Below the pieces are notes generated by a model that ran no database searches, was not told where the DNA came from, and was given only the letters and a program-made list of their open reading frames with translations. Below are positions 13,710 to 44,368 of a DNA stretch of 64,000 nt, piece after piece. A program made the position numbers and the translations under genes. Every line of letters begins with the position of its first letter. Within the stretch, counting starts at the first letter, position 1. This DNA is from Myceligenerans pegani (GTDB lineage: Bacteria; Actinomycetota; Actinomycetes; Actinomycetales; Cellulomonadaceae): positions 95,001-159,000 of the forward strand of contig NZ_JADBGR010000109.1 in NCBI RefSeq assembly GCF_014892515.1, written 5' to 3'.

Positions 13710-15221
13710 TCAGAGCCCTCGCGCGAGCCGGTGGTACGCCTGGTTGAATCGCACCTGGTCAGCGAACCCGCGGCGGGTCGTCGACTCGTCGATCACCAGT
13801 AGCTCGGTGTCGGTGATCTGCGCGAACACCTCGAACGCCTCGATCCCGGCGGCGGTGGACATCACCGTGTGGTGCGCCCCGCCGGCGGTCAGCCACGCCT
13901 CGGCCGACACGTCGAACGACGGCCGCGGCCGCCACACGGCCCGCGCCACGGGCAGGTGCGGCAGGTCGGCCGGCGGCACCACGGTGTCCACCACGTTGGC
14001 CGTGAGCCGGAACCGGTCGCGCATGTCCGCGAGCGAGACGACGACGGCGCCTTCGGTGGCGTCGGCGTCGAACACCATCCGCACCGGGTCCTCCTTGCCG
14101 CCGATCCCCAGCGGGTGGATCTCCACGCGGGGCTTCGACGTCGTCAGCGACGGGCAGATCTCCAGCATGTGCGCGCCGAGGATGAGCTCCGACCCCGGCG
14201 TGAGGTCGTAGGTGTAGTCCTCCATGAGCGACGCCCCGCCCGGCAGCCCCTCGCCCATCACCTTGGCCGCACGCACCAGGACCGCCGTCTTCCAGTCACC
14301 CTCCGCGCCGAAGCCGAAGCCGGCGCCCATGAGCCGCTGCACGGCCAGGCCGGGGAGCTGCCGCAGGGCGCCCAGGTCCTCGAAGTTCGTGGTGAACGCC
14401 TTGGCGCCGAGCCCGTCCAGGAAGGTGCGCAGGGCGATCTCCTGCCGGGCCGCGTAGCGCAGGGACTCGTGCCGCTCGGCGCCCTTGCGCAGCTCGTCCA
14501 CGACGTCGTACAGGTCCTCGTACTCCGCCACGAGCGCGTCCACGGCGTCGTCGGCCACCGCGTCCACGGCATCGACCAGGTCGTTCACGGCCCAGGTGTT
14601 CACCGAGACGCCGAACCGCAGTTCCGCCTCGGTCTTGTCGCCCTCGGTCACGGCCACGTTGCGCATGTTGTCGCCGAACCGCGCCAGCTTCAGCTCGCGC
14701 ACGGCGGCCGCGCCGGCGGCGCCGCGCACCCAGGTGCCCACGCGCGCCGTCACGCGCGGGTTCGACACGTGCCCCACCACCGTGGTGCGCGCCGCGCCGA
14801 TCCGGGTCGCCAGGTAGGCGTACTCCCGGTCGCCGTGCGCGGCCTGGTTGAGGTTCATGAAGTCGAAGTCGATGGTGTCCCACGGCAGCTCGACGTTCGC
14901 CTGCGTGTGCAAATGCAGCAGGGGCTTGGTCAGCGCGGACAGCCCGCCGATCCACATCTTCGCCGGGCTGAAGGTGTGCATCCAGGTCACGACGCCCAGC
15001 ACGCGGTCGTCGGAGTTGGCCTCCAGCATGGCGCGGCGGATCGCGTCCGAGTCCTTCAGCACGGGCTTCCAGACGACGCGCGCCGGCACGTCGTCGGACG
15101 CGTCGAGCGCCGTCGCGACGTCCTGCGACTGCTCGGCGACCTGGCGCAGCGTCTCCTCGCCGTAGAGGTCCTGGCTGCCGGTGAAGAACCAGACCTCGCG
15201 GTCGGCGTAGGGCTTCGACAT
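13710..15221 (-). CDS. araA: L-arabinose isomerase
   Basis: Cytoplasmic enzyme of 503 aa that converts L-arabinose to L-ribulose, the first intracellular step of the pathway; length is normal for Ara[12 protein letters not shown] at the N-terminus and [16 protein letters not shown] are AraA signatures. Metal-ligand regions are visible as [27 protein letters not shown] and GGAHHTVM. It is the last gene of araB-araD-araA, separated from araD by 119 bp that contain a 25-bp-stem hairpin. AAAGGA lies about 11 nt before ATG 15221. Its stop is followed by the importer operator, so the ara enzyme and importer operons abut head to tail. High certainty. Confidence 0.97.
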
Positions 15222-29436: not shown

Positions 29437-31197
29437 CTACGACGTCCGCAGCGGCTGCCACGGGGCGATCTCGTCCGCGGCCCGGACCGCTTCCTCCGCG
29501 GTCTCGTCGTCCGGCGCGCGCAGCGCCTCCAGTTCGGCGTCGATCCGCCTGCGCCAGCCGTCGATCTCGCGCTGCCTCACGGCGTCGTCCCAGCCGAGCA
29601 GCGGCGCCACGACGTCGGCCACCTCGGCCGCGGCGTCGACGCCGCGGTCCGCCACCTCGTAGACGAGGCGGGTGCGGTGCGCGAGCACGTCCTCCAGGTG
29701 CAGCGCCCCCTCGTGCGTGACGGCGTGATGCACCTCGGCGCGCAGGTAGGCGGGCGCGTGCTCCAGCGGCGCGGCCAGACCCGGATCCGCCTCGCACAGC
29801 TCCACCAGGTCGGTCAGGTTGGAGCCGTAGCGGTGCAGCAGGTGGTCCACCATCGGCGGGTTCCAGCCGAACCGCTTCGCCCACGCCCGCGCCTGGCGCT
29901 GGACCGCCCGGAGCCCGACCGCGCCCGTGAGCGGGATCTGGTGGGTGATGCTCGGCAGCGCGGCCGCTCGCTGCCCGATGGCGAAGTCGACGGCGTCCTT
30001 GGCCATCACCCGGTACGTGGTGAGCTTGCCGCCCGCGATCACGGTGAGTCCCGCCGTGGGCGAGGCGACGGTGTGCTCACGCGACACCTTCGCGCTCGAC
30101 GTGCCCGCCTTCGTGCCCGGCTGCAGGAGCGGCCGCAGACCCGCGTACGTGCCGATGACGTCCTCCCGGGTGAGCGGGTGCGCGAGCACCGAGTTGGCGT
30201 GCTCGAGCACGTAGTCGACGTCGGCGCTGGTGGCCACCGGGTTCACGGGGTCGAGCTGCCAGGGCGTGTCCGTGGTGCCGATGATCCAGTACCGCGACCA
30301 GGGGATGACGAACAGCACGGACTTCTCGGTCTGCAGGATCAGTCCGACGTGACCGCGGATCCGGTCGCGCGGCACCACCAGGTGGATGCCCTTCGACGCG
30401 AGCACGTGCAGGCCGCCCGCCGGGCTGTCCGGCTGGCCGGCCAGCTCCTGCGTCTCCTCCGTCCACACGCCGGTCGCGTTGATCACCGCGCGAGCGCGCA
30501 CCGTGATCTCCCGGCCGGTCTCCAGGTCGACGACGACGGCGCCGTTCACCGCGCCCGTGCTGCCCTGCGTCAGCCCGACCACCTGCGTGCGGCTCGCGAC
30601 GTGCGCGCCGTAGGACGCGGCGGTCCGCACGAGCGTGGTCACGAGGCGGGCGTCGTCGACCGACGCGTCCCAGTACTGCACGGCGCCGACTGCGGCGTCG
30701 TGCGCGAGGTCCGGGAACTTCGCCTCCATCTGCGCCTTGGTCAGATGGCGGTGGAAGGGCATCGGGCGGCGACCGGGGGTGAGGGTCGCCAGGACGTCGT
30801 ACAGCGCGATGCCCGTGCCGACGTACGCGCGCTCCCAGACGCGGTGCTCCAGCGGGTAGAGGAACGGCACCGGCCGGACCAGGTGCGGCGCGAGGTCGCG
30901 CAGGAGCAGGTCGCGCTCGGTGAGGGCCTCGTGGACCAGGTCGAAGTCGAGCATCTGCAGGTACCGCAGGCCGCCGTGGACCAGCTTGCTGCTGCGGCTC
31001 GAGGTGCCCTGGGCCCAGTCCTGCGCCTCGACGAGGGCGGTCGACAGCCCGCGGGTCACGGCGTCGAGCGCGATGCCGGCACCGGTCACGCCGCCGCCGA
31101 CGACCAGCACGTCGAGCTCGGTGGTGATGTCCGTACTCGCCTCGAGGGTGGCCAGGGCCTGGGCTCGGGACTCTGCGGTCAGCCGGGTAGATGCCAT
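29437..31197 (-). CDS. glpD: Aerobic glycerol-3-phosphate dehydrogenase
   Basis: FAD-dependent, membrane-peripheral enzyme of 586 aa that oxidises sn-glycerol-3-P to dihydroxyacetone-P and feeds electrons to quinone. The FAD-binding start is LVVGGGVTGAGIALDAVTRG (about 29-48), followed by SSRSSKLVHGGLRYL, YWDASVDDARL, INATGVWTEE and GLRPLLQPG. The C-terminal DAO_C domain (about 440-575) contains YRVMAKDAVDFA and RYGSNLTDLVELC. ATG 31197 is chosen because the Rossmann fold lies soon after and an upstream extension would overlap the divergent argA gene. No glpF or glpK gene is adjacent. Confidence 0.95.
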   Translation of the reverse strand: MASTRLTAESRAQALATLEASTDITTELDVLVVGGGVTGAGIALDAVTRGLSTALVEAQDWAQGTSSRSSKLVHGGLRYLQMLDFDLVHEALTERDLLLRDLAPHLVRPVPFLYPLEHRVWERAYVGTGIALYDVLATLTPGRRPMPFHRHLTKAQMEAKFPDLAHDAAVGAVQYWDASVDDARLVTTLVRTAASYGAHVASRTQVVGLTQGSTGAVNGAVVVDLETGREITVRARAVINATGVWTEETQELAGQPDSPAGGLHVLASKGIHLVVPRDRIRGHVGLILQTEKSVLFVIPWSRYWIIGTTDTPWQLDPVNPVATSADVDYVLEHANSVLAHPLTREDVIGTYAGLRPLLQPGTKAGTSSAKVSREHTVASPTAGLTVIAGGKLTTYRVMAKDAVDFAIGQRAAALPSITHQIPLTGAVGLRAVQRQARAWAKRFGWNPPMVDHLLHRYGSNLTDLVELCEADPGLAAPLEHAPAYLRAEVHHAVTHEGALHLEDVLAHRTRLVYEVADRGVDAAAEVADVVAPLLGWDDAVRQREIDGWRRRIDAELEALRAPDDETAEEAVRAADEIAPWQPLRTS

Positions 31198-31257
31198 GTC
31201 GCCAATCCACCACGGGACGAGGACGCAGGCAAGGGCAGCACGCGTACTGTGGGCGGC

Positions 31258-31950
31258 GTGACCGTGAACATCAGGCCCGCGAGGCCCGCCGACGTGCGGG
31301 CGATCCGCGCCCTCGTGGAGCCGTACGCCCAGCAGCGGATCCTGCTGGCCAAGGAGTGGGTCGGGTACTACGAGGCGGTGCAGGAGTTCCTGGTCGCGGA
31401 GGTCTCGATGGACGACGACGGCCCGGGCAGGGCCGGTTCCGCAGGTGCCGTATCCGGCGTCGAGAGCCCCGAACGCACGGCCGCTCCAGCACCCGGCCCT
31501 GCCGTATCCGGCACCGCGAGCCCCGAGCGCACCGCCACGTCCGCGCCCGGCTACGCCACGACCGCCGTCGTCGGCCCCGAGAAGACCGGCACGTCCGCAG
31601 CGACCGCCGTCGTCGGCTGCGGTGCCCTGCACGTCATGTGGGAGGACCTCGCCGAGATCCGTACGCTCGCGGTCGACCCGGGCTCGCGCGGACGGCGCGT
31701 CGGGCACGAGCTCGTGGAGGGCCTGCTCGACCGCGCGCGCGGCCTCGGCCTGCGCCGGGTCTTCTGCCTGACGTTCGAGGTGGAGTTCTTCCGCAAGCAC
31801 GGCTTCGAGGAGATCGACAGCACGCCGGTGAGCCCCGAGGTCTACGCGGAGCTGCTGCGCTCGCACGACGACGGCGTCGCCGAGTTCCTTGACCTGGCCC
31901 GCGTGAAGCCGAACACCCTGGGTAACTCCCGCATGCTCCTCGAGCTGTGA
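31258..31950 (+). CDS. argA: Amino-acid N-acetyltransferase (N-acetylglutamate synthase) with repeat insert
   Basis: GNAT enzyme of 230 aa matching the short actinobacterial ArgA, first step of arginine synthesis. Family blocks are IRPARPADVRAIRALVEPY, YYEAVQEFLVAE, VVGCGALHVMWEDLAEIRT, RRVGHELVEGLLDRA, CLTFEVEFFRKHGFEEI and the C-terminal LARVKPNTLGNSRMLLEL. Between the second and third blocks lies an insert of about 70 residues built from 18-aa repeats (AVSGVESPERTAAPAPGP and variants), DNA copies at 31447-31500 and 31501-31554. The insert falls in a surface loop and would not break the acetyl-CoA site. TACTGT (31245-31250) 7 nt before GTG 31258 implies a leaderless mRNA. The gene stands alone, with no arg operon nearby. 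Confidence 0.9.
   Translation: MTVNIRPARPADVRAIRALVEPYAQQRILLAKEWVGYYEAVQEFLVAEVSMDDDGPGRAGSAGAVSGVESPERTAAPAPGPAVSGTASPERTATSAPGYATTAVVGPEKTGTSAATAVVGCGALHVMWEDLAEIRTLAVDPGSRGRRVGHELVEGLLDRARGLGLRRVFCLTFEVEFFRKHGFEEIDSTPVSPEVYAELLRSHDDGVAEFLDLARVKPNTLGNSRMLLEL
31447..31599 (+). repeat. 54-bp tandem repeat inside argA
   Basis: Two 54-bp in-frame units (31447-31500, 31501-31554), both opening with GCCGTATCCGGC, and a diverged third beginning at 31555. They encode 18-residue Pro/Ser/Ala/Thr-rich repeats with a conserved SPERT or GPEKT core. Confidence 0.8.
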
Positions 31951-31991
31951 CGCCCGTCGACCACGAGGTCGACGGCTCCTAGGGTGGGGGC

Positions 31992-33365
31992 GTGTCCATC
32001 AGCTACACCCTGCCCGGCGTCCATGTCACCGATCGCACCGTCGAGGTCCCGCTCGACTGGTCGGATCCCGACGACGGGCGCACGCTGAGCGTCTTCTTCC
32101 GCGAGCTCGTCGACCCCACGAAGCGGCGGGACGACCTTCCGCTGCTCGTCTTCCTGCAGGGCGGCCCCGGCGGCAAGGGACCGCGACCCACGGGCCCGGA
32201 CGGCTGGGTCGGCTCGGCGCTGGAACGATTCCGGGTGGTGCTGCTCGACCAGCGTGGCACCGGCCGGTCCACCGCGGTCCGCGCGGACGCCCTGAACGCC
32301 CTCGGCGACGCGCACGCCCAGGCCGAGTACCTCACGCACTTCCGCGGGGACGACATCGTCCGCGACGCCGAGTACATCCGCGACTCCGTCTACGAGGGCA
32401 GGCGCTGGACGACCCTCGGCCAGTCGTACGGCGGGTTCATCACGATGACGTACCTGTCGCTGGCGCCCGAGGGCGTGAACGCGAGCCTGGTGACGGGCGG
32501 ACTGCCCAGCCTGACGGCGTCGGCCCGCGAGGTGTACGAGCGCACGCAGCCGCGCGTCGCCGGCAAGAACGCCCGGTTCCGCGCACGCTACCCGCACACC
32601 GCGGGACTGCTGGGGCGGATCGCCGACCGGCTCGCCGTCGGCGACACCACGCTGCCCGACGGCTCCCCGCTCAGCGTCCGCCGCCTGCAGAGCCTGGGCA
32701 TGGACTTCGGCATGGGCCCGGGCTTCGAGCGCGTCCACTGGATCCTCGACGAGGCCTTCGACGGCCTCGCCGACGACGACGGCGGACGTGGCGGGGCGGG
32801 CACGGCGGCGTCGGACATCGGCGTGGCCGGCGGCCCGGCGGGTACACCCGACGCGGACCTCACCGACACGTTCCTGGCGTCGGTCGCCGCGGCGACCGAC
32901 TTCGTCGGCCGCCCGCTGTACGCGGTGCTGCACGAGCCGATCTACGCGCAGTCCCACACCGGCCCGACGGCCTGGGCGGCGCAGTCCGTGCGCGATGCGG
33001 ACCCTGCTTTCGCCGAGGGCGCGCGCCCGCTGCTGCTGACCGGCGAGATGATCTACCCCTGGATGTTCTCCGAGATCCCGGCGCTCCGGCCGTTCGCCGC
33101 CGCGGCCGACGCCCTGGCCGTCTGGGAGGACTGGGGCGATCTGTACGACCTGGATCGCCTGGCCTCGAACGAGGTGCCCGTCGAGGCCGTCGTCTATCAC
33201 GACGACATGTTCGTGGACGCGGGGTTCTCGCTGGACACGGCCGCCCACGTCGGCAACACGGAGGCGTGGGTGACGAACGAGTTCGAGCACGACGGTCTCC
33301 GCCTCGGCAACACGTTCGCCACCCTCCTGAACCGCCTGGACGCCCGCGGCGGTCCGCTGCGCTGA
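31992..33365 (+). CDS. Proline iminopeptidase-like alpha/beta hydrolase (S33)
   Basis: Serine peptidase of 457 aa, probably cytoplasmic, that removes N-terminal proline from peptides. QGGPGGKGPRP is the oxyanion-hole motif, S145 lies in the nucleophile elbow LGQSYGGF, and LLDQRGTGRS is the strand-5 motif of prolyl aminopeptidases. The cap domain (about 165-330) contains a Gly/Ala-rich loop. The C-terminal YHDDMFVDAGFSLDTA and EHDGLR regions carry the acid and His candidates. TAGGGT (31980-31985) 6 nt before GTG 31992 suggests leaderless expression. It follows argA by 41 bp but probably has its own promoter. Confidence 0.9.
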   Translation: MSISYTLPGVHVTDRTVEVPLDWSDPDDGRTLSVFFRELVDPTKRRDDLPLLVFLQGGPGGKGPRPTGPDGWVGSALERFRVVLLDQRGTGRSTAVRADALNALGDAHAQAEYLTHFRGDDIVRDAEYIRDSVYEGRRWTTLGQSYGGFITMTYLSLAPEGVNASLVTGGLPSLTASAREVYERTQPRVAGKNARFRARYPHTAGLLGRIADRLAVGDTTLPDGSPLSVRRLQSLGMDFGMGPGFERVHWILDEAFDGLADDDGGRGGAGTAASDIGVAGGPAGTPDADLTDTFLASVAAATDFVGRPLYAVLHEPIYAQSHTGPTAWAAQSVRDADPAFAEGARPLLLTGEMIYPWMFSEIPALRPFAAAADALAVWEDWGDLYDLDRLASNEVPVEAVVYHDDMFVDAGFSLDTAAHVGNTEAWVTNEFEHDGLRLGNTFATLLNRLDARGGPLR

Positions 33366-40505: not shown

Positions 40506-41057
40506 GTGACCACCGGCACGAGGGCGGAGCCACCCCCGCCGTCGGACAGCGAGAATGGAGCCGTGCCGCATTCTGCCGACGCCTCGCGCCCCGCGTCCCC
40601 GCTCGCCCACCTCATCTACTTCGAGCCCCGCATCCCGGGGAACACCGGCTCGGCGATCCGGCTCGCCGCGGTCACGGGCGCGCGGCTGCACCTGGTCGAA
40701 CCACTCGGCTTCGACCTGTCCGAGGCGAAGCTGAAGCGGGCGGGACTCGACTACCACGACCTCGCCGTGATGGAGGTGCATCCGTCGTTCGACGCCGCGC
40801 TCGGCGCCCTGCCCGGCTCCCGGGTCTTCGCCTTCACGACGCGCGCCACCACCCGGTACACCGACGTCGAGTACCGCCCGGACGACATCCTCCTGTTCGG
40901 CCCCGAGCCCACCGGCCTGCCGGACGACGTGCTCACGCACCCCCGCGTCACGGATCGGGTCGCGATCCCGATGCTGCCGGGCCGGCGCTCCCTGAACCTG
41001 ACGAACGCGGCGTCGATCGCCGTCTACGAGGCCTGGCGCCAGCGCGACTTCGCGTGA
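40506..41057 (+). CDS. trmL: tRNA (cytidine/uridine-34 2'-O)-methyltransferase
   Basis: SPOUT-class methyltransferase of about 160-183 aa acting on the wobble base of tRNA-Leu. The trefoil-knot family blocks are clear: YFEPRIPGNTGSAIRLAA, LHLVEPLGFDL, LKRAGLDYHDL, LLFGPEPTGLP and the knot IPMLPGRRSLNLTNAASIAVYEAWRQ. The conserved part begins near residue 33, so the true start may be the later GTG 40563. GTG 40506 is kept because GAGGA lies about 11 nt upstream. The stop overlaps an open frame leading to the SGNH gene, but the latter starts 87 bp later with its own ribosome-binding site. Confidence 0.92.
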   Translation: MTTGTRAEPPPPSDSENGAVPHSADASRPASPLAHLIYFEPRIPGNTGSAIRLAAVTGARLHLVEPLGFDLSEAKLKRAGLDYHDLAVMEVHPSFDAALGALPGSRVFAFTTRATTRYTDVEYRPDDILLFGPEPTGLPDDVLTHPRVTDRVAIPMLPGRRSLNLTNAASIAVYEAWRQRDFA

Positions 41058-41143
41058 CCGTCGACCAGACGGCACGATCATTGCCCACGGCTCTCAATTC
41101 CGTTACCTTTCCGGGAAAACGCCTTCCAGGAGGTCGCGACGCA

Positions 41144-41983
41144 ATGGAGCAGAAGACCGAACCGACCCGCCGTGCCGTGCTGACCGGGCTCACCGCCGTG
41201 CCGCTCGCCGCGGTGGCTGGGTCCGCAGCAGCATCCGAGACAGCAGCAGCCGCGAACCGCGGCCCCCGAGCCCGCCGCCACCGCACCATCCACATCGCCG
41301 GCGACTCCACCGCCGCACCCAAGGACGTGGCCAGCGCGCCTGAGGCCGGCTGGGGCATGGCTCTGCCGTACTACCTGGCCGGGCACGTCGCGGTGGCCAA
41401 CCACGCGCGCAACGGCCGCAGCTCGAAGAGCTTCGTCGACGAAGGCCGCCTCGACCGGATCGCCGAGGCGATCGCACCCGGCGACATCCTGCTCACCCAG
41501 TTCTCGCACAACGACGAGAAGATCACGGACCCCGCCCGCGGCACCGATCCCTGGACCACGTACCAGGAGTACCTGACCCGGTACGTCGACGTGGCGCGGA
41601 CCGCCGGTGCCGCGCCGGTGTTCGCGACCAGCGCCGAGCGCCGCCGGTTCGACGACGACGGCAACGCCCGGGAAACCCACGGCGAATACCCGCACGCCAT
41701 GCGAGCGCTGGCGGCGGAACTCGGCGTTCCCCTGATCGACGTCCAACCCCAGACCCTCGCGCTGTGGCAGGAACTCGGCCCGGAAGAGACCAAGAACTAC
41801 TTCCTCTGGACCGACACCGAGCAGGACAACACGCACTTCCAGCCGCGGGGTGCCGCCGCCGTGGCGCTCATGGTCGCGGAGGGCCTGCTCAGCACCTGCC
41901 TCCTGCGCCGCGGTGACGTGCGCCGACTGGACGAGACGCCGTCGGACGACTGGTTCACCTGGCTGCCCGAACGCCCGGACTGA
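41144..41983 (+). CDS. Secreted SGNH hydrolase, rhamnogalacturonan acetylesterase-like (CE12)
   Basis: 279-aa exported esterase. The N-terminus carries a twin-arginine signal (TRRAVLTGL) ending near residue 45. The catalytic Ser is S55 in IAGDSTAAP. Block III is QFSHNDE, and the Asp/His pair is D228 and H231 in DNTHFQPRG; these define the SGNH/CE12 type that deacetylates rhamnogalacturonan in pectin. AGGAGG lies 12 nt before ATG 41144. The longer open frame upstream starts inside trmL and is rejected. Removal of acetyl groups would assist the pectin-acting enzymes encoded elsewhere in the window. Tat export suggests folding before secretion. Confidence 0.88.
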   Translation: MEQKTEPTRRAVLTGLTAVPLAAVAGSAAASETAAAANRGPRARRHRTIHIAGDSTAAPKDVASAPEAGWGMALPYYLAGHVAVANHARNGRSSKSFVDEGRLDRIAEAIAPGDILLTQFSHNDEKITDPARGTDPWTTYQEYLTRYVDVARTAGAAPVFATSAERRRFDDDGNARETHGEYPHAMRALAAELGVPLIDVQPQTLALWQELGPEETKNYFLWTDTEQDNTHFQPRGAAAVALMVAEGLLSTCLLRRGDVRRLDETPSDDWFTWLPERPD

Positions 41984-41990
41984 GCCCGAG

Positions 41991-43205
41991 TCACCCCCTG
42001 CGGCCGGCCCGGGCGGCGAACGCGTCCATCGCGGTCAGCACGGAAACCGCCTGCCATACCTGATGCCGCTTCGCGCTCCGGGCCGGGACCAGGATCTCCA
42101 CCTTTTCGAGGGCATCGATCGCATTGCGCGCGCTGCGGTCCGAGACGTCCAGCGTCGACGCCACGTAGTCGGCGTTCACCACGGGCTGGGCGAAGAGTTC
42201 GTCGACCAGTCGCCATGCGGCGGAATCGGAGCGCACGGCGAGTTGCGACCGCCACGCCTCACGGATGTCCAGGATGTCCTGGGACAGCTTTCTCCCGTTC
42301 GCCGTCGCGGCGAGGGCCGCGTCGGCGACCTGTCGAACGATGGGGTCGAGGTCGCCCGTGCGGTACGCGGTGAGCGCGTCGAAGTACCGATCGGGGTCAC
42401 GGAGCAGCCCCGCGGAGACGGGCACCGTGGCGTGGCGCGTCAGCCCGCGACCACGCAGAACCGTGTGAAGGACGACGCGACCGGTTCGGCCGTTGCCGTC
42501 CGTGAACGGATGGATGGTCTCGAACTGCGCGTGCACCAGGGCGGCATGCACGAGCGGCGCCAGGTCACGGCGTCGTGCGGCGAACCGCACGAGGTCGTCG
42601 AGCGCTGCCTCGATGTGGTCGTGGTGCGGGGGCACGAAGTCGGCGTCGTGCGGGCTGATCGGCGAACTGCCGATCCATACCTGCTCTTGCCGGAGCCTTC
42701 CGGCGACATCGGGTTCGGACTCCCCCAGCAGCGTCCGGTGCACGGCAAGAATCTGCGCCACCGTGACCTCGTCACCGAGGAGCAACGCCTCGCTCATGGC
42801 TCTGACGTTCGCGGCCACGAGCTCGGCGTTCTGCTTCGCGCCGACGCCGAGGCTTGCCATCGCAAGGTTGCGAGCGTTCGCTGTGAGGTGCTCGATCTGC
42901 GAGCTCGACGCCGACTCCGTCCGGAGCAGCACAGCCGGCATCGTCACAGGCAGTTCCGCGATCTCCGTATCGAACCGCGCGACGTCCGACGCCACATCGT
43001 CGACCAGGGTGAGCAGGTCGCGCGAGATGTCGACCGGGCTGTCCGCGATCGGCGACAGGCGAGCGGCACGATAGGGGCGCGACAGCCGGTGTCGCTGCCA
43101 GACGTCGAGGCGCGCGTCGTCCGCAGGCGCGGTCCACTCGCGTTCCTCGTAGTCGATCGCGGGCCAGGCCGACGTAGCCATCTGCTCCATAGCCTTCAAC
43201 ACCAC
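41991..43205 (-). CDS. Fic-family AMP-transferase-like protein with winged-helix C-terminus
   Basis: 404-aa protein with a central Fic domain (about 120-290). The catalytic HPFTDGNGRTGR (H232) is intact, so transfer of AMP or another nucleotide moiety to a target hydroxyl is possible. ESASSSQIE near residue 100 resembles the autoinhibitory (S/T)xxxE helix with a preceding Fic_N domain. The C-terminus (about 330-385; STLDVSDRSARNAIDALEKVEIL) is a winged helix that could bind DNA, perhaps the six-copy repeat immediately upstream. Start is uncertain: GTG 43205, GTG 43202 (AAGGAG at 5 nt) or ATG 43190. The stop lies 7 bp from the convergent SGNH gene. Confidence 0.9.
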   Translation of the reverse strand: MVLKAMEQMATSAWPAIDYEEREWTAPADDARLDVWQRHRLSRPYRAARLSPIADSPVDISRDLLTLVDDVASDVARFDTEIAELPVTMPAVLLRTESASSSQIEHLTANARNLAMASLGVGAKQNAELVAANVRAMSEALLLGDEVTVAQILAVHRTLLGESEPDVAGRLRQEQVWIGSSPISPHDADFVPPHHDHIEAALDDLVRFAARRRDLAPLVHAALVHAQFETIHPFTDGNGRTGRVVLHTVLRGRGLTRHATVPVSAGLLRDPDRYFDALTAYRTGDLDPIVRQVADAALAATANGRKLSQDILDIREAWRSQLAVRSDSAAWRLVDELFAQPVVNADYVASTLDVSDRSARNAIDALEKVEILVPARSAKRHQVWQAVSVLTAMDAFAARAGRRG

Positions 43206-43305
43206 CTCTCCTTGTTGAAGGCTAGCATCGTAGCCTTCAACAAGGGCGGATCTTGTTGAAGGCTAGCGCCCTAGCCTTCAACAACGGCCGTTGTCGTTGA
43301 AGGCT
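43190..43305. repeat. Six alternating copies of TAGCCTTCAACAA before the fic gene
   Basis: Copies occur at 43190-43201, 43212-43224 (inverted), 43231-43243, 43253-43265 (inverted), 43272-43284 and 43296-43305 (inverted, truncated to GTTGAAGGCT). Orientation alternates and centres lie about 19-22 bp apart, near two turns of DNA. The array spans the fic promoter and its first codons and stops before the divergent DUF808 transcription unit. An operator array or a mobile miniature repeat are the main readings. Confidence 0.9.
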
Positions 43306-43349
43306 CGGGTTTCCGGGATCCGGGCTGGCGTTTCCCGTAGGCTGCCGCC

Positions 43350-43397
43350 ATGCACGTTGCGCACACCGCCCCCCGTTCATCGGAGACGAGCCGATGA
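43350..43397 (+). CDS. Possible 15-aa leader peptide coupled to DUF808 gene
   Basis: ATG 43350 lies 6 nt after TAGGCT (43338-43343), the spacing of leaderless starts in this window. The frame encodes MHVAHTAPRSSETSR and its TGA overlaps the DUF808 ATG as ATGA. The DUF808 ribosome-binding site GGAG lies within it. Translation of the leader could therefore control the gene behind it. There is no direct evidence of expression. Confidence 0.35.
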   Translation: MHVAHTAPRSSETSR

Positions 43398-44368
43398 GCG
43401 CCGGCCTTCTCGGGCTGCTGGACGACGTCGCGGCGCTCGCCCGCCTCGCCGCCGCGTCCATCGACGACGTCGGCGCCGCCGCCGGCAGGGCCACCGCCAA
43501 GGCCGCGGGCGTCGTGATCGACGACACGGCCGTGACGCCGCAGTACGTGCACGGTGTCACCGCCGCGCGCGAGCTCCCGATCGTCAAGAAGATCGCCTGG
43601 GGGTCGATCCGCAACAAGCTGCTGATCATCCTGCCGATCGCGTTGATCCTGTCGGTGTGGGCGCCCTGGGCGCTCACGCCGATCCTCATGATCGGCGGCA
43701 CGTATCTCGCGTTCGAGGGCACGCACAAGATCCTCGGCTGGTTCCACAAGCACGAGGACCACGAGGTGCCGGCCGTCGTCAAGGGCGAGCAGTCCGAGAA
43801 GGCGGTGATCTCGGGTGCCATCCGCACCGACCTGATCCTCTCGGCCGAGATCATGGTGATCGCCCTCAACGAGGTCGCGGACTCGTCCTTCTGGTTCCGG
43901 CTCGGCGCCCTGATCGTCGTGGCGCTCATCATCACCGTCGTCGTCTACGGCGTGGTCGGGCTCATCGTGAAGATGGATGACGTCGGACTCCTCATGACGC
44001 AGCGCGAGTCCCCCACCAGCCGGCGGGTCGGCCGTGCGCTGGTGGAGGGGATGCCGAAGCTGCTCAGCGCCATCTCCGTGATCGGCACGATCGCGATGCT
44101 CTGGGTCGGCGGGCACATCCTGCTCGTGGGTCTCGACGAGCTCGGCTGGCACGCGCTGTACGGCTGGGTGCACGGCATCGAGGAGGCCGTCCACCACGCC
44201 GTTCCGGTCGCCGGCGCGGCCCTCGCATGGCTGTTCAACACGCTCTGCTCGGCCGTCCTGGGCCTGGTGGTGGGCGGCGCCGTCGTCGGGGTCATGCACC
44301 TCCTGCCGCGCCGCAAGCCGGCGGAGCCGGGGGAGACGTCGGATCCCGCGCCTGCCGAGCAGGCGTAG
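43394..44368 (+). CDS. DUF808 family membrane protein (YedI-like)
   Basis: 324-aa integral membrane protein. The N-terminal block GLLGLLDDVAALARLAAASIDDVGAAAGRA and the following GVVIDDTAVTPQYV are the family signature. Five to six hydrophobic segments follow (about 70-110, 150-205, 225-255, 275-305), with the conserved FEGTHKILGWFHK loop between. The biochemical function of the family is unknown. GGAG lies 8 nt before ATG 43394, inside the candidate leader peptide. It is divergent from fic across the repeat array. The tail is Pro/Glu-rich. Confidence 0.92.
   Translation: MSAGLLGLLDDVAALARLAAASIDDVGAAAGRATAKAAGVVIDDTAVTPQYVHGVTAARELPIVKKIAWGSIRNKLLIILPIALILSVWAPWALTPILMIGGTYLAFEGTHKILGWFHKHEDHEVPAVVKGEQSEKAVISGAIRTDLILSAEIMVIALNEVADSSFWFRLGALIVVALIITVVVYGVVGLIVKMDDVGLLMTQRESPTSRRVGRALVEGMPKLLSAISVIGTIAMLWVGGHILLVGLDELGWHALYGWVHGIEEAVHHAVPVAGAALAWLFNTLCSAVLGLVVGGAVVGVMHLLPRRKPAEPGETSDPAPAEQA

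What the first reader, a model, noticed from the sequence alone, without database searches (positions are those of the whole stretch)
43190..43305. Six-copy alternating operator-like array in front of a Fic gene
Six copies of a 10-13-bp element (TAGCCTTCAACAA) alternate in orientation with centres 19-22 bp apart, close to two DNA turns. They cover the fic promoter and its first codons. The Fic protein ends in a winged helix (DVSDRSARNAIDALEKVEIL), so it could bind its own array. Direct observation: copy number, orientation and spacing. Inference: autoregulation by the Fic protein. Alternative: remnants of a miniature inverted-repeat element.
Basis: partly seen in the sequence, partly recalled or inferred. 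Interest (0 to 1): 0.8.

Follow-up and report, generated by a model that had tools for sequence, protein, structure and literature searches.

The report
Fic enzyme's self-addressed operator array
A bacterial AMP-transferring enzyme gene of the anti-phage SoFic type sits behind six alternating copies of a short DNA word that its own protein's DNA-reading helix very probably recognises, and many relatives carry the same layout written in different words that change together with that helix.

Summary
The array is real: six alternating half-sites at 43190-43306, spaced 22/19/22/19/22 bp (41-bp period), in front of fic (minus strand). The exact 13-mer occurs nowhere else in the 5.87-Mb genome. The protein is a SoFic-like Fic enzyme ending in a winged helix. 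Of 141 usable relatives, 79 have a non-GC-rich palindrome at the same place, against 3 of 139 windows farther upstream and 0 of 423 coding windows. The half-site letters differ between relatives and follow the recognition helix: scanning the whole protein, the five 9-residue windows and the three single columns (R357, N361, D356) most associated with half-site sequence all overlap or lie in that helix. In 21 of 23 loci the half-site is closer to the locus with the most similar helix in other genomes than to a paralogue in the same genome. The 41-bp period persists while letters change, and recurs in distant phyla. Precedent: CccR of Yersinia pseudotuberculosis represses itself through one inverted repeat. 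Apparently new: the family-wide code, the phased multi-site array, the conserved spacing.

The parts
43190..43202 (+). half-site 1 (TAGCCTTCAACAC, 1 mismatch); touches the probable fic start codon
43212..43224 (-). half-site 2 (TAGCCTTCAACAA, exact)
43231..43243 (+). half-site 3 (exact)
43253..43265 (-). half-site 4 (exact)
43272..43284 (+). half-site 5 (exact)
43294..43306 (-). half-site 6 (GAGCCTTCAACGA, 2 mismatches), farthest from fic
41991..43205 (-). fic ORF as listed (404 aa, GTG start): Fic/DOC domain, SoFic-like enzyme with C-terminal winged helix
43188..43190 (-). probable true start codon ATG (sixth codon of the listed ORF), overlapping half-site 1 by one base
   Evidence: same ATG position in L012
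42477..42512 (-). codons for the catalytic motif HPFTDGNGRTGR (residues 232-243)
42102..42140 (-). codons for the recognition helix (residues 356-368) of the winged helix; R357 and N361 co-vary most with half-site sequence, D356 third in the full set
43394..44368 (+). divergent DUF808 gene; shares the intergenic region, but a DUF808 gene is next to fic only in L011 and L012 of 52 loci tested

Best explanation
The six half-sites are the operator array of the Fic protein itself. Fic is a SoFic-like enzyme whose C-terminal winged helix reads TAGCCTTCAAC; two subunits (dimer assumed) take a pair of oppositely oriented half-sites about two helical turns apart, and the 41-bp period (about four turns) puts successive pairs on the same face of DNA so that neighbouring Fic molecules can touch and bind cooperatively. 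Occupancy covers the region where the promoter should lie and the translation start, so the most likely effect is tight autorepression that keeps a potentially self-toxic enzyme scarce without a neighbouring antitoxin. Shown by computation here: the array, its uniqueness, its layout in relatives, the co-variation with the recognition helix and the 41-bp period. Inferred: binding, stoichiometry, cooperativity, sign of regulation, toxicity and anti-phage role.
For: (1) Array real and confined to fic. (2) AlphaFold model, mean pLDDT 93.7, has a winged helix at the C-terminus with recognition helix 356-368; best PDB match 7cb8, Mycobacterium marinum Fic, TM 0.87. (3) Relatives: palindrome score >=9 in a 130-nt window at the start in 82 of 141 loci, against 15 of 139 windows farther upstream, 17 of 423 coding windows and 2.0% of 2,820 shuffles; counting only arms of GC <=60%: 79 of 141, 3 of 139, 0 of 423, and among 39 gene starts called in the window only fic and the divergent DUF808 that shares the array. 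(4) Three or more copies of the locus's own half-site in 60 of 82 loci against 1 of 82 in a coding control. (5) Co-variation (82 loci): among 380 nine-residue windows of the protein the five with the highest partial correlation to half-site similarity start at 353, 355, 354, 356 and 350; among 364 columns the top three are R357, N361 and D356; 0 of 999 label permutations reach the observed value. R357 and N361 stay the top two columns in all four subsets tried. (6) Paralogue test: 21 of 23 loci. (7) 12-mer self-match at lag 41 in 31 of 141 upstream regions (40: 8; 42: 6; any other lag at most 7) against 1 and 0 in two coding controls at that lag. (8) Distant homologues: 30 of 71 with a palindrome against 0 of 71 in coding sequence, 4 of 70 farther upstream and 3.9% of shuffles; lag 41 in 5 of 71, lags 40 and 42 in 2 each, none at 31-39 or 43-47. 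(9) Published precedent: CccR, a Fic protein with C-terminal HTH, represses its own promoter through inverted repeats (PMC9755527, abstract and passages).
Against: No binding, footprint or expression data for this protein. No sigma-70-like promoter match in the intergenic region. 59 of 141 relatives have no palindrome of score 9 in the window: the operator is degenerate there, the start is misplaced (as in L016), or the feature is not universal. Columns outside the helix also score (P86 and A209, 0.213, next to D356, 0.214), and D356 is not among the top eight columns in three of the four subsets. Fic-domain identity still correlates with half-site similarity after correction for the helix (partial 0.198). 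In the strictest dereplication (34 loci) windows at 79-82 score above the helix window, although N361 and R357 stay the top columns. Two of 23 paralogue comparisons go the other way (L060, where the palindrome picked is a GC-rich hairpin, and L078), and that test does not separate the helix from the descent of the whole gene. Label permutation does not fully remove phylogenetic dependence. The Coxiella relative CbFic2 bound random DNA with high affinity (PMC10628234, passages). Repression rather than activation is assumed.
Confidence: 0.88

Rival explanations
1. Another, trans-acting regulator encoded elsewhere reads the array and controls fic (and perhaps the divergent DUF808 gene).
For: The array lies between divergent genes, and no binding data exist.
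Against: A shared regulator would give one motif per genome or a regulon; here paralogues in one genome have different half-sites, closer to Fic loci with the most similar helix in other genomes in 21 of 23 loci; the palindrome occurs nowhere else in the genome; the columns that best track the half-site are in the Fic recognition helix; a DUF808 neighbour is found in only 2 of 52 loci.
Confidence: 0.05
2. The repeats act as RNA: hairpins in the fic leader hide the ribosome site or attenuate transcription.
For: Inverted repeats can form stems; the half-site next to the start could pair with its neighbour over the ribosome-binding region (sequence); weak sub-threshold Rfam matches lie in the array, as hairpins often give.
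Against: Rfam matches are well below gathering scores (26.6 against 68; 20 and 19.2 against 37.5). In L012 the changes in half-sites 2, 5 and 6 (numbered from the end far from fic) are not matched by their neighbours, so pairs are broken rather than compensated (read by eye from the two sequences). Non-neighbouring copies carry the same letters. Helix co-variation and a 41-bp period are not expected from RNA pairing.
Confidence: 0.04
3. Remnants of a miniature inverted-repeat element.
For: Short inverted repeats between genes.
Against: No other copy in the genome; same layout with unrelated letters in front of homologues in many genomes and several phyla.
Confidence: 0.01
4. Fic binds the array, but mainly to be stored or switched: DNA-bound Fic is the inactive or deAMPylating form and transcriptional control is secondary (not exclusive of the best explanation).
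For: For the Coxiella protein CbFic2 DNA binding was proposed to switch a monomer that AMPylates to a dimer that deAMPylates (PMC10628234, abstract and passages).
Against: One array per genome can hold only a handful of molecules; the palindrome sits at the fic start in relatives, as an autoregulatory site would.
Confidence: 0.12

Closest known systems
CccR of Yersinia pseudotuberculosis (PMC9755527; PDB 7xux, link recalled)
   Same: Fic domain with C-terminal helix-turn-helix; represses its own gene by binding inverted repeats near its promoter; binding shown there by gel shift, footprint and affinity measurements (abstract and passages read).
   Different: One inverted repeat with a 26-bp spacer (AGATAATCAT-N26-ATGATAATCT) instead of six half-sites at 19/22 bp; it is a type VI secreted effector. 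Low sequence similarity: chain 7xux_A matches the window protein with E 4.4e-9 over residues 136-289 only.
SoFic / Sofic, anti-phage Fic proteins (PADLOC SoFic; PDB 3eqx, 3zcn; PMC12249575)
   Same: Same architecture; PADLOC SoFic profile match 221.9 bits over residues 58-392; fold match TM 0.69 to 3zcn_A and 3eqx_B.
   Different: Misses NCBIfam's SoFic equivalog cut-off by far (63.3 against 550 bits). PMC12249575 (passages) describes a small antitoxin gene AS1 downstream of E. coli Sofic; here the convergent ORF 41054-41983 ends 7 bases from the end of fic. PMC10628234 (2023) states that DNA binding by SoFic had not been shown.
CbFic2 of Coxiella burnetii (PMC10628234; PDB 8cil)
   Same: Class II Fic with C-terminal HTH that binds DNA; a 20-bp DNA spanning two subunits was proposed there (passages), close to the 19-22 bp spacing here.
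   Different: Tested on random DNA; no operator described in the passages read; acts on host histone.
Fic protein of Mycobacterium marinum, PDB 7cb8
   Same: Nearest solved relative over nearly the full length (E 2.1e-61; TM 0.87).
   Different: A search for the code in the library gave only unrelated papers; regulation unknown to me.

Membership tests
Fic-HTH autorepressor (CccR type) | Fic domain plus C-terminal DNA-binding winged helix in one protein | tested here: met
   Pfam Fic 72.9 bits; recognition helix 356-368 in a pLDDT 93.7 model
Fic-HTH autorepressor (CccR type) | Inverted repeats immediately upstream of its own gene | tested here: met
Fic-HTH autorepressor (CccR type) | The protein's own domain specifies the operator | tested here: met
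   By co-variation only, not by binding; paralogue test
Fic-HTH autorepressor (CccR type) | Direct binding and repression of its own promoter | not testable with these tools
   needs gel shift, footprint and reporter
SoFic anti-phage Fic proteins | Match to the PADLOC SoFic profile | tested here: met
   221.9 bits, E 3.8e-66, profile positions 18-357 of 361
SoFic anti-phage Fic proteins | NCBIfam SoFic equivalog cut-off | tested here: not met
   63.3 bits against 550; hence 'SoFic-like', not SoFic
SoFic anti-phage Fic proteins | Protection against phage | not testable with these tools
   needs infection assays
Class II autoinhibited AMPylase | Catalytic motif HxFx(D/E)GNGRxxR (motif recalled) | tested here: met
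   HPFTDGNGRTGR, residues 232-243
Class II autoinhibited AMPylase | Inhibitory motif (S/T)xxxE(G/N) before the Fic core (motif recalled) | tested here: inconclusive
   S101 and E105 are invariant in the 20 sequences of A1; the window has H106, several relatives have N there
Toxin-antitoxin module | Separate antitoxin gene next to the toxin | tested here: not met
   fic ends at 41991 and the convergent ORF at 41983; between fic and the divergent DUF808 lies only the array; no small gene was sought further away
Miniature inverted-repeat element | Several dispersed copies in the genome | tested here: not met
Known structured RNA | Rfam match above gathering score | tested here: not met
   region 42900-43700

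The most novel reading that the evidence does not exclude
Fic-winged-helix enzymes across bacteria form a large set of insulated, self-addressed circuits in which the recognition helix and a phased half-site array (41-bp ruler, in some phyla about 51 bp) evolve together, so that several paralogues work side by side in one cell; the array assembles a Fic oligomer that both silences the gene and sets the enzyme's AMPylation state, so the operator DNA takes the role of an antitoxin and its loss or occlusion during phage infection would release the toxin.
Probability: 0.18. Interest if true: 0.87.

Novelty: new variant of a known kind. Interest (0 to 1): 0.7.

Why it matters
How bacteria keep self-toxic Fic defence enzymes in check is open: PMC12249575 reports that wild-type Sofic could not be cloned behind a single lac operator, takes this as toxicity from leaky expression, and calls its activation on infection elusive (passages); PMC10628234 notes in 2023 that DNA binding by SoFic had not been shown. 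The data here say that a control is written in front of the gene, in a form that each protein would read for itself, and give a prediction (helix residues 357 and 361, perhaps 356, against half-site letters; 41-bp phasing) that a gel shift can test. It also offers a natural series of protein-DNA recognition pairs for one fold.

Tried and rejected
Search for the same letters in relatives was not used as the conservation test: relatives carry other letters, so only layout-based measures work. The first display of upstream regions had minus-strand loci in the wrong orientation; it was replaced by the tblastn-oriented set. The first palindrome scan (42 of 70 loci with at most 4 of 100 shuffles reaching the score) used rough anchors and is superseded. 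A plain palindrome count at gene starts of the window is not clean: 11 of 39 starts (crude GC3-based gene calls) reach score 9, mostly GC-rich hairpins; hence the GC <=60% version, in which only fic and DUF808 remain. In the lag count the coding controls have their own peaks at other lags (up to 29 loci at lag 15 in the second, 19 at lag 6 in the first), because homologous coding sequences share repeats; shared descent can inflate such counts upstream too, so I also give the dereplicated number. In one search each of the 82 loci brings one inverted pair by construction, so the 166 of 185 alternating neighbours overstate the point. Sub-threshold Rfam matches (a microRNA, nadA) were dismissed as hairpin noise. 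sigma-70 scan: nothing. Papers: ten searches found CccR, CbFic2 and Sofic/AS1; in the titles and abstract starts listed I saw no multi-site operator array, 41-bp period or helix-operator co-variation for Fic proteins. Several listings were capped (20 of 50, 25 of 28, 15 of 113 and 12 of 165 papers), and the library lacks most subscription journals and all preprints.

Rows dropped: 4 of 145 loci (L065, L070, L151, L152) had misplaced start regions and were left out. The co-variation set is the 82 loci with palindrome score >=9, selected on the DNA alone. The structure alignment A2 took 52 of the 75 distant proteins of at least 300 aa plus the window protein. The output was cut in the middle and that part was not read; one search prints the arms and helices of all 82 loci used.

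Full report
What is there. In front of fic (window 41991-43205, minus strand) lie six copies of TAGCCTTCAACAA in strictly alternating orientation from 43190 to 43306: copies 2 to 5 are exact, copy 1 has one mismatch and copy 6 two. Start-to-start distances are 22, 19, 22, 19, 22, so copies on one strand repeat every 41 bp (one search lists the 41-bp direct repeat independently). Shuffles of the window give 1.39 matches on average, at most 5, against 11 seen. In the whole genome (5,869,858 bases, 111 contigs) the exact 13-mer occurs four times, all here, and the palindromic pair with up to three mismatches occurs only here. The likely start codon is the ATG at 43190-43188, which touches the nearest half-site and is at the same position in L012.

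The protein. Pfam gives one domain, Fic (72.9 bits); PADLOC gives SoFic (221.9 bits); NCBIfam's SoFic equivalog is far below its cut-off (63.3 of 550 bits), so I call it SoFic-like. The catalytic motif HPFTDGNGRTGR is intact, and S101 and E105 of the inhibitory motif are invariant in 20 aligned sequences (motifs recalled). An AlphaFold model from an alignment of 53 sequences has mean pLDDT 93.7 and shows a C-terminal winged helix: helices 329-337, 345-352 and 356-368 (recognition helix), then two short strands. The closest solved structure is 7cb8 of Mycobacterium marinum (TM 0.87). The genome's family is probably Cellulomonadaceae (name recalled): relative G068 of the same family has the contig length and overlapping coordinates of L156, titled Cellulomonas timonensis.

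Relatives have the same layout in other letters. A protein search found matches in 111 of 149 related genomes and, at E <= 1e-60, in 100 of 221 genomes of the family. I took 145 loci (L011-L155), 141 of them usable. The test window is 130 nt anchored on the codon aligned to W24, about -111 to +19 of the window's ATG. A palindrome of score 9 or more lies there in 82 of 141, against 15 of 139 in a 130-nt window farther upstream, 2, 7 and 8 of 141 in three coding windows, and 2.0% of 2,820 shuffles. Because GC-rich hairpins inflate such counts (11 of 39 gene starts in the window reach 9), I repeated it for arms of at most 60% GC: 79 of 141, 3 of 139, 0 of 423; after dereplication at 75% identity 42 of 75, 2 of 73 and, in one coding window, 0 of 75; of 39 gene starts in the window only fic and the divergent DUF808, which share the array. 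A DUF808 gene is next to fic only in L011 and L012 of 52 loci, so the array goes with fic. With each locus's own half-site (10-mers, up to 2 mismatches), 60 of 82 loci hold three or more copies, against 1 of 82 in a coding control.

The letters follow the recognition helix. Examples: SDRxARNAI with AGCCTTCAAC (window, L012, L091, L098); SERAAYNAI with TAGCCTTCAGTAACG (L093; L092 has one changed base in one arm); (T/V)RxARNAL with CCTTCCGTA (L018, L019, L100); SLPAAQGAI with CCTTGGACAAG (L027, L029, L109); xxTAQRAL with TTACTTACA(C/G)TT (L064, L137, L147); GAQSAQNAL with TAATCCAAGTTTCG (L140, L146, L149); NVRRHM with TTA(T/C)CAGTTA (L045, L046). To test this without choosing the helix beforehand, I compared half-site similarity between all pairs of the 82 loci with identity in every 9-residue window of the protein, correcting for Fic-domain identity. 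The best five of 380 windows start at 353, 355, 354, 356 and 350; the best three of 364 columns are R357 (0.333), N361 (0.286) and D356 (0.214), followed closely by P86 and A209 (0.213) outside the helix; the median window is 0.07; 0 of 999 permutations reach the observed partial correlation of 0.294. Fic-domain identity keeps a partial correlation of 0.198 when the helix is corrected for. R357 and N361 are the top two columns in four subsets (63, 34, 62 and 47 loci); D356 stays among the top eight only in the first; in the 34-locus subset windows at 79-82 outrank the helix window, perhaps a clade marker.

Paralogues argue against a shared regulator. For 23 loci with a Fic paralogue in the same genome and a palindrome in both, the half-site is closer to the locus or loci with the most similar helix in other genomes (4 to 9 of 9 residues alike) than to the paralogue in 21; the exceptions are L060, where the detected palindrome is a GC-rich hairpin, and L078. 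This test does not by itself separate the helix from the descent of the whole gene.

A conserved ruler. Counting 12-mers that recur with at least 10 of 12 identities, lag 41 is seen in 31 of 141 upstream regions, lag 40 in 8 and lag 42 in 6, while every other lag from 5 to 60 is seen in at most 7; two coding controls give 1 and 0 at lag 41, though they have peaks of their own at other lags. After dereplication at 75%, lag 41 is seen in 13 of 75, the next best lags between 30 and 54 in 3. These 13 carry several different recognition helices, so the spacing is kept while the letters change. At 41 bp, about four turns, all pairs face the same way, which suggests contact between neighbouring Fic molecules (inference).

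Far beyond the family. In 71 usable homologues from one capped scan of the species genomes (about 21-57% identical), 30 have a palindrome of score 9 before the start, 0 of 71 in coding sequence, 4 of 70 farther upstream; the shuffle rate is 3.9%, and 27 of 71 reach p <= 0.04 on their own shuffles. At 11 of 12 identities, lag 41 is seen in 5 of 71, lags 40 and 42 in 2 each, none at 31-39 or 43-47, with 2 at lag 30, 1 at 48, 3 at 51 and 2 at 52; the coding control has single loci at 30 and 39. The loci at 41 are titled Gemmataceae, Delongbacteria, Gastranaerophilales, Lentisphaerae and Bacteroidetes. Alternating copies can be read directly, for example in L227, L217 and L202.

How it most likely works. 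Fic reads its own half-sites through the N-terminal end of the recognition helix; pairs of half-sites about two turns apart take two subunits; neighbouring pairs bind cooperatively; the bound array blocks fic transcription and perhaps translation start. This would hold a potentially self-toxic enzyme at a low, self-set level without a neighbouring antitoxin gene (none is seen between fic and its neighbours). Binding, repression, cooperativity and toxicity are inferred. CccR shows that a Fic protein with a C-terminal HTH can bind and repress its own promoter (PMC9755527, abstract and passages); for CbFic2 a switch of activity by DNA binding was reported (PMC10628234, abstract and passages).

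Rivals. A mobile-element remnant is excluded by uniqueness and by the layout in relatives. A separate regulator is hard to square with the paralogue and helix results. RNA hairpins are disfavoured because L012's changes break rather than restore pairing (read by eye) and because helix co-variation needs a protein reader.

Novelty. Self-repression by a Fic-HTH protein is known to me from one case. In ten library searches (some listings capped) I saw no description of multi-site alternating arrays, of the 41-bp spacing or of a helix-operator code in this family. I file it as a new variant of a known kind.

Noticed in passing
window, within 120 nt upstream of the ORF 13710-15221 (minus strand): A 70-nt imperfect palindrome (score 21, arms with GTGAGTGATCGG) before the start; the highest-scoring palindrome at a gene start among the 39 genes called.
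   Followed up: no
L175, L177, L179, L199, L202 upstream regions: In some distant Fic homologues half-sites repeat every 51-52 bp (about five turns) instead of 41, as if there were two rulers.
   Followed up: partly
L058 (G017), upstream of its fic: A palindrome of 74 nt in all (score 24) before a Fic homologue, containing half-site-like TATCACTTTCA/TGAAAGTGATA but far longer than needed for an operator.
   Followed up: no
G000:C38:25498-25668 (L010): The genome's only other Fic-domain match at E <= 0.001: 38.8 bits in a 134-aa open frame; its surroundings were not examined.
   Followed up: no
genomes G003, G014, G017, G025, G046, G056, G077, G084, G226, G249, G265: Two or more Fic-winged-helix paralogues with palindromes in one genome; their half-sites mostly differ from each other, suggesting insulated parallel circuits.
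   Followed up: partly
window 31866-31992: The divergent ORFs 29437-31866 (-) and 31992-33365 (+) share one short GC-rich palindrome CCGTCGACC-N4-GGTCGACGG between them.
   Followed up: no
L016: Its operator-like palindrome TACGAAAGGAT-N8-ATCCTTTCGTA lies 164-193 nt before the alignment anchor, outside the test window, so the gene may start farther upstream than assumed and the count of 82 of 141 may be too low.
   Followed up: no
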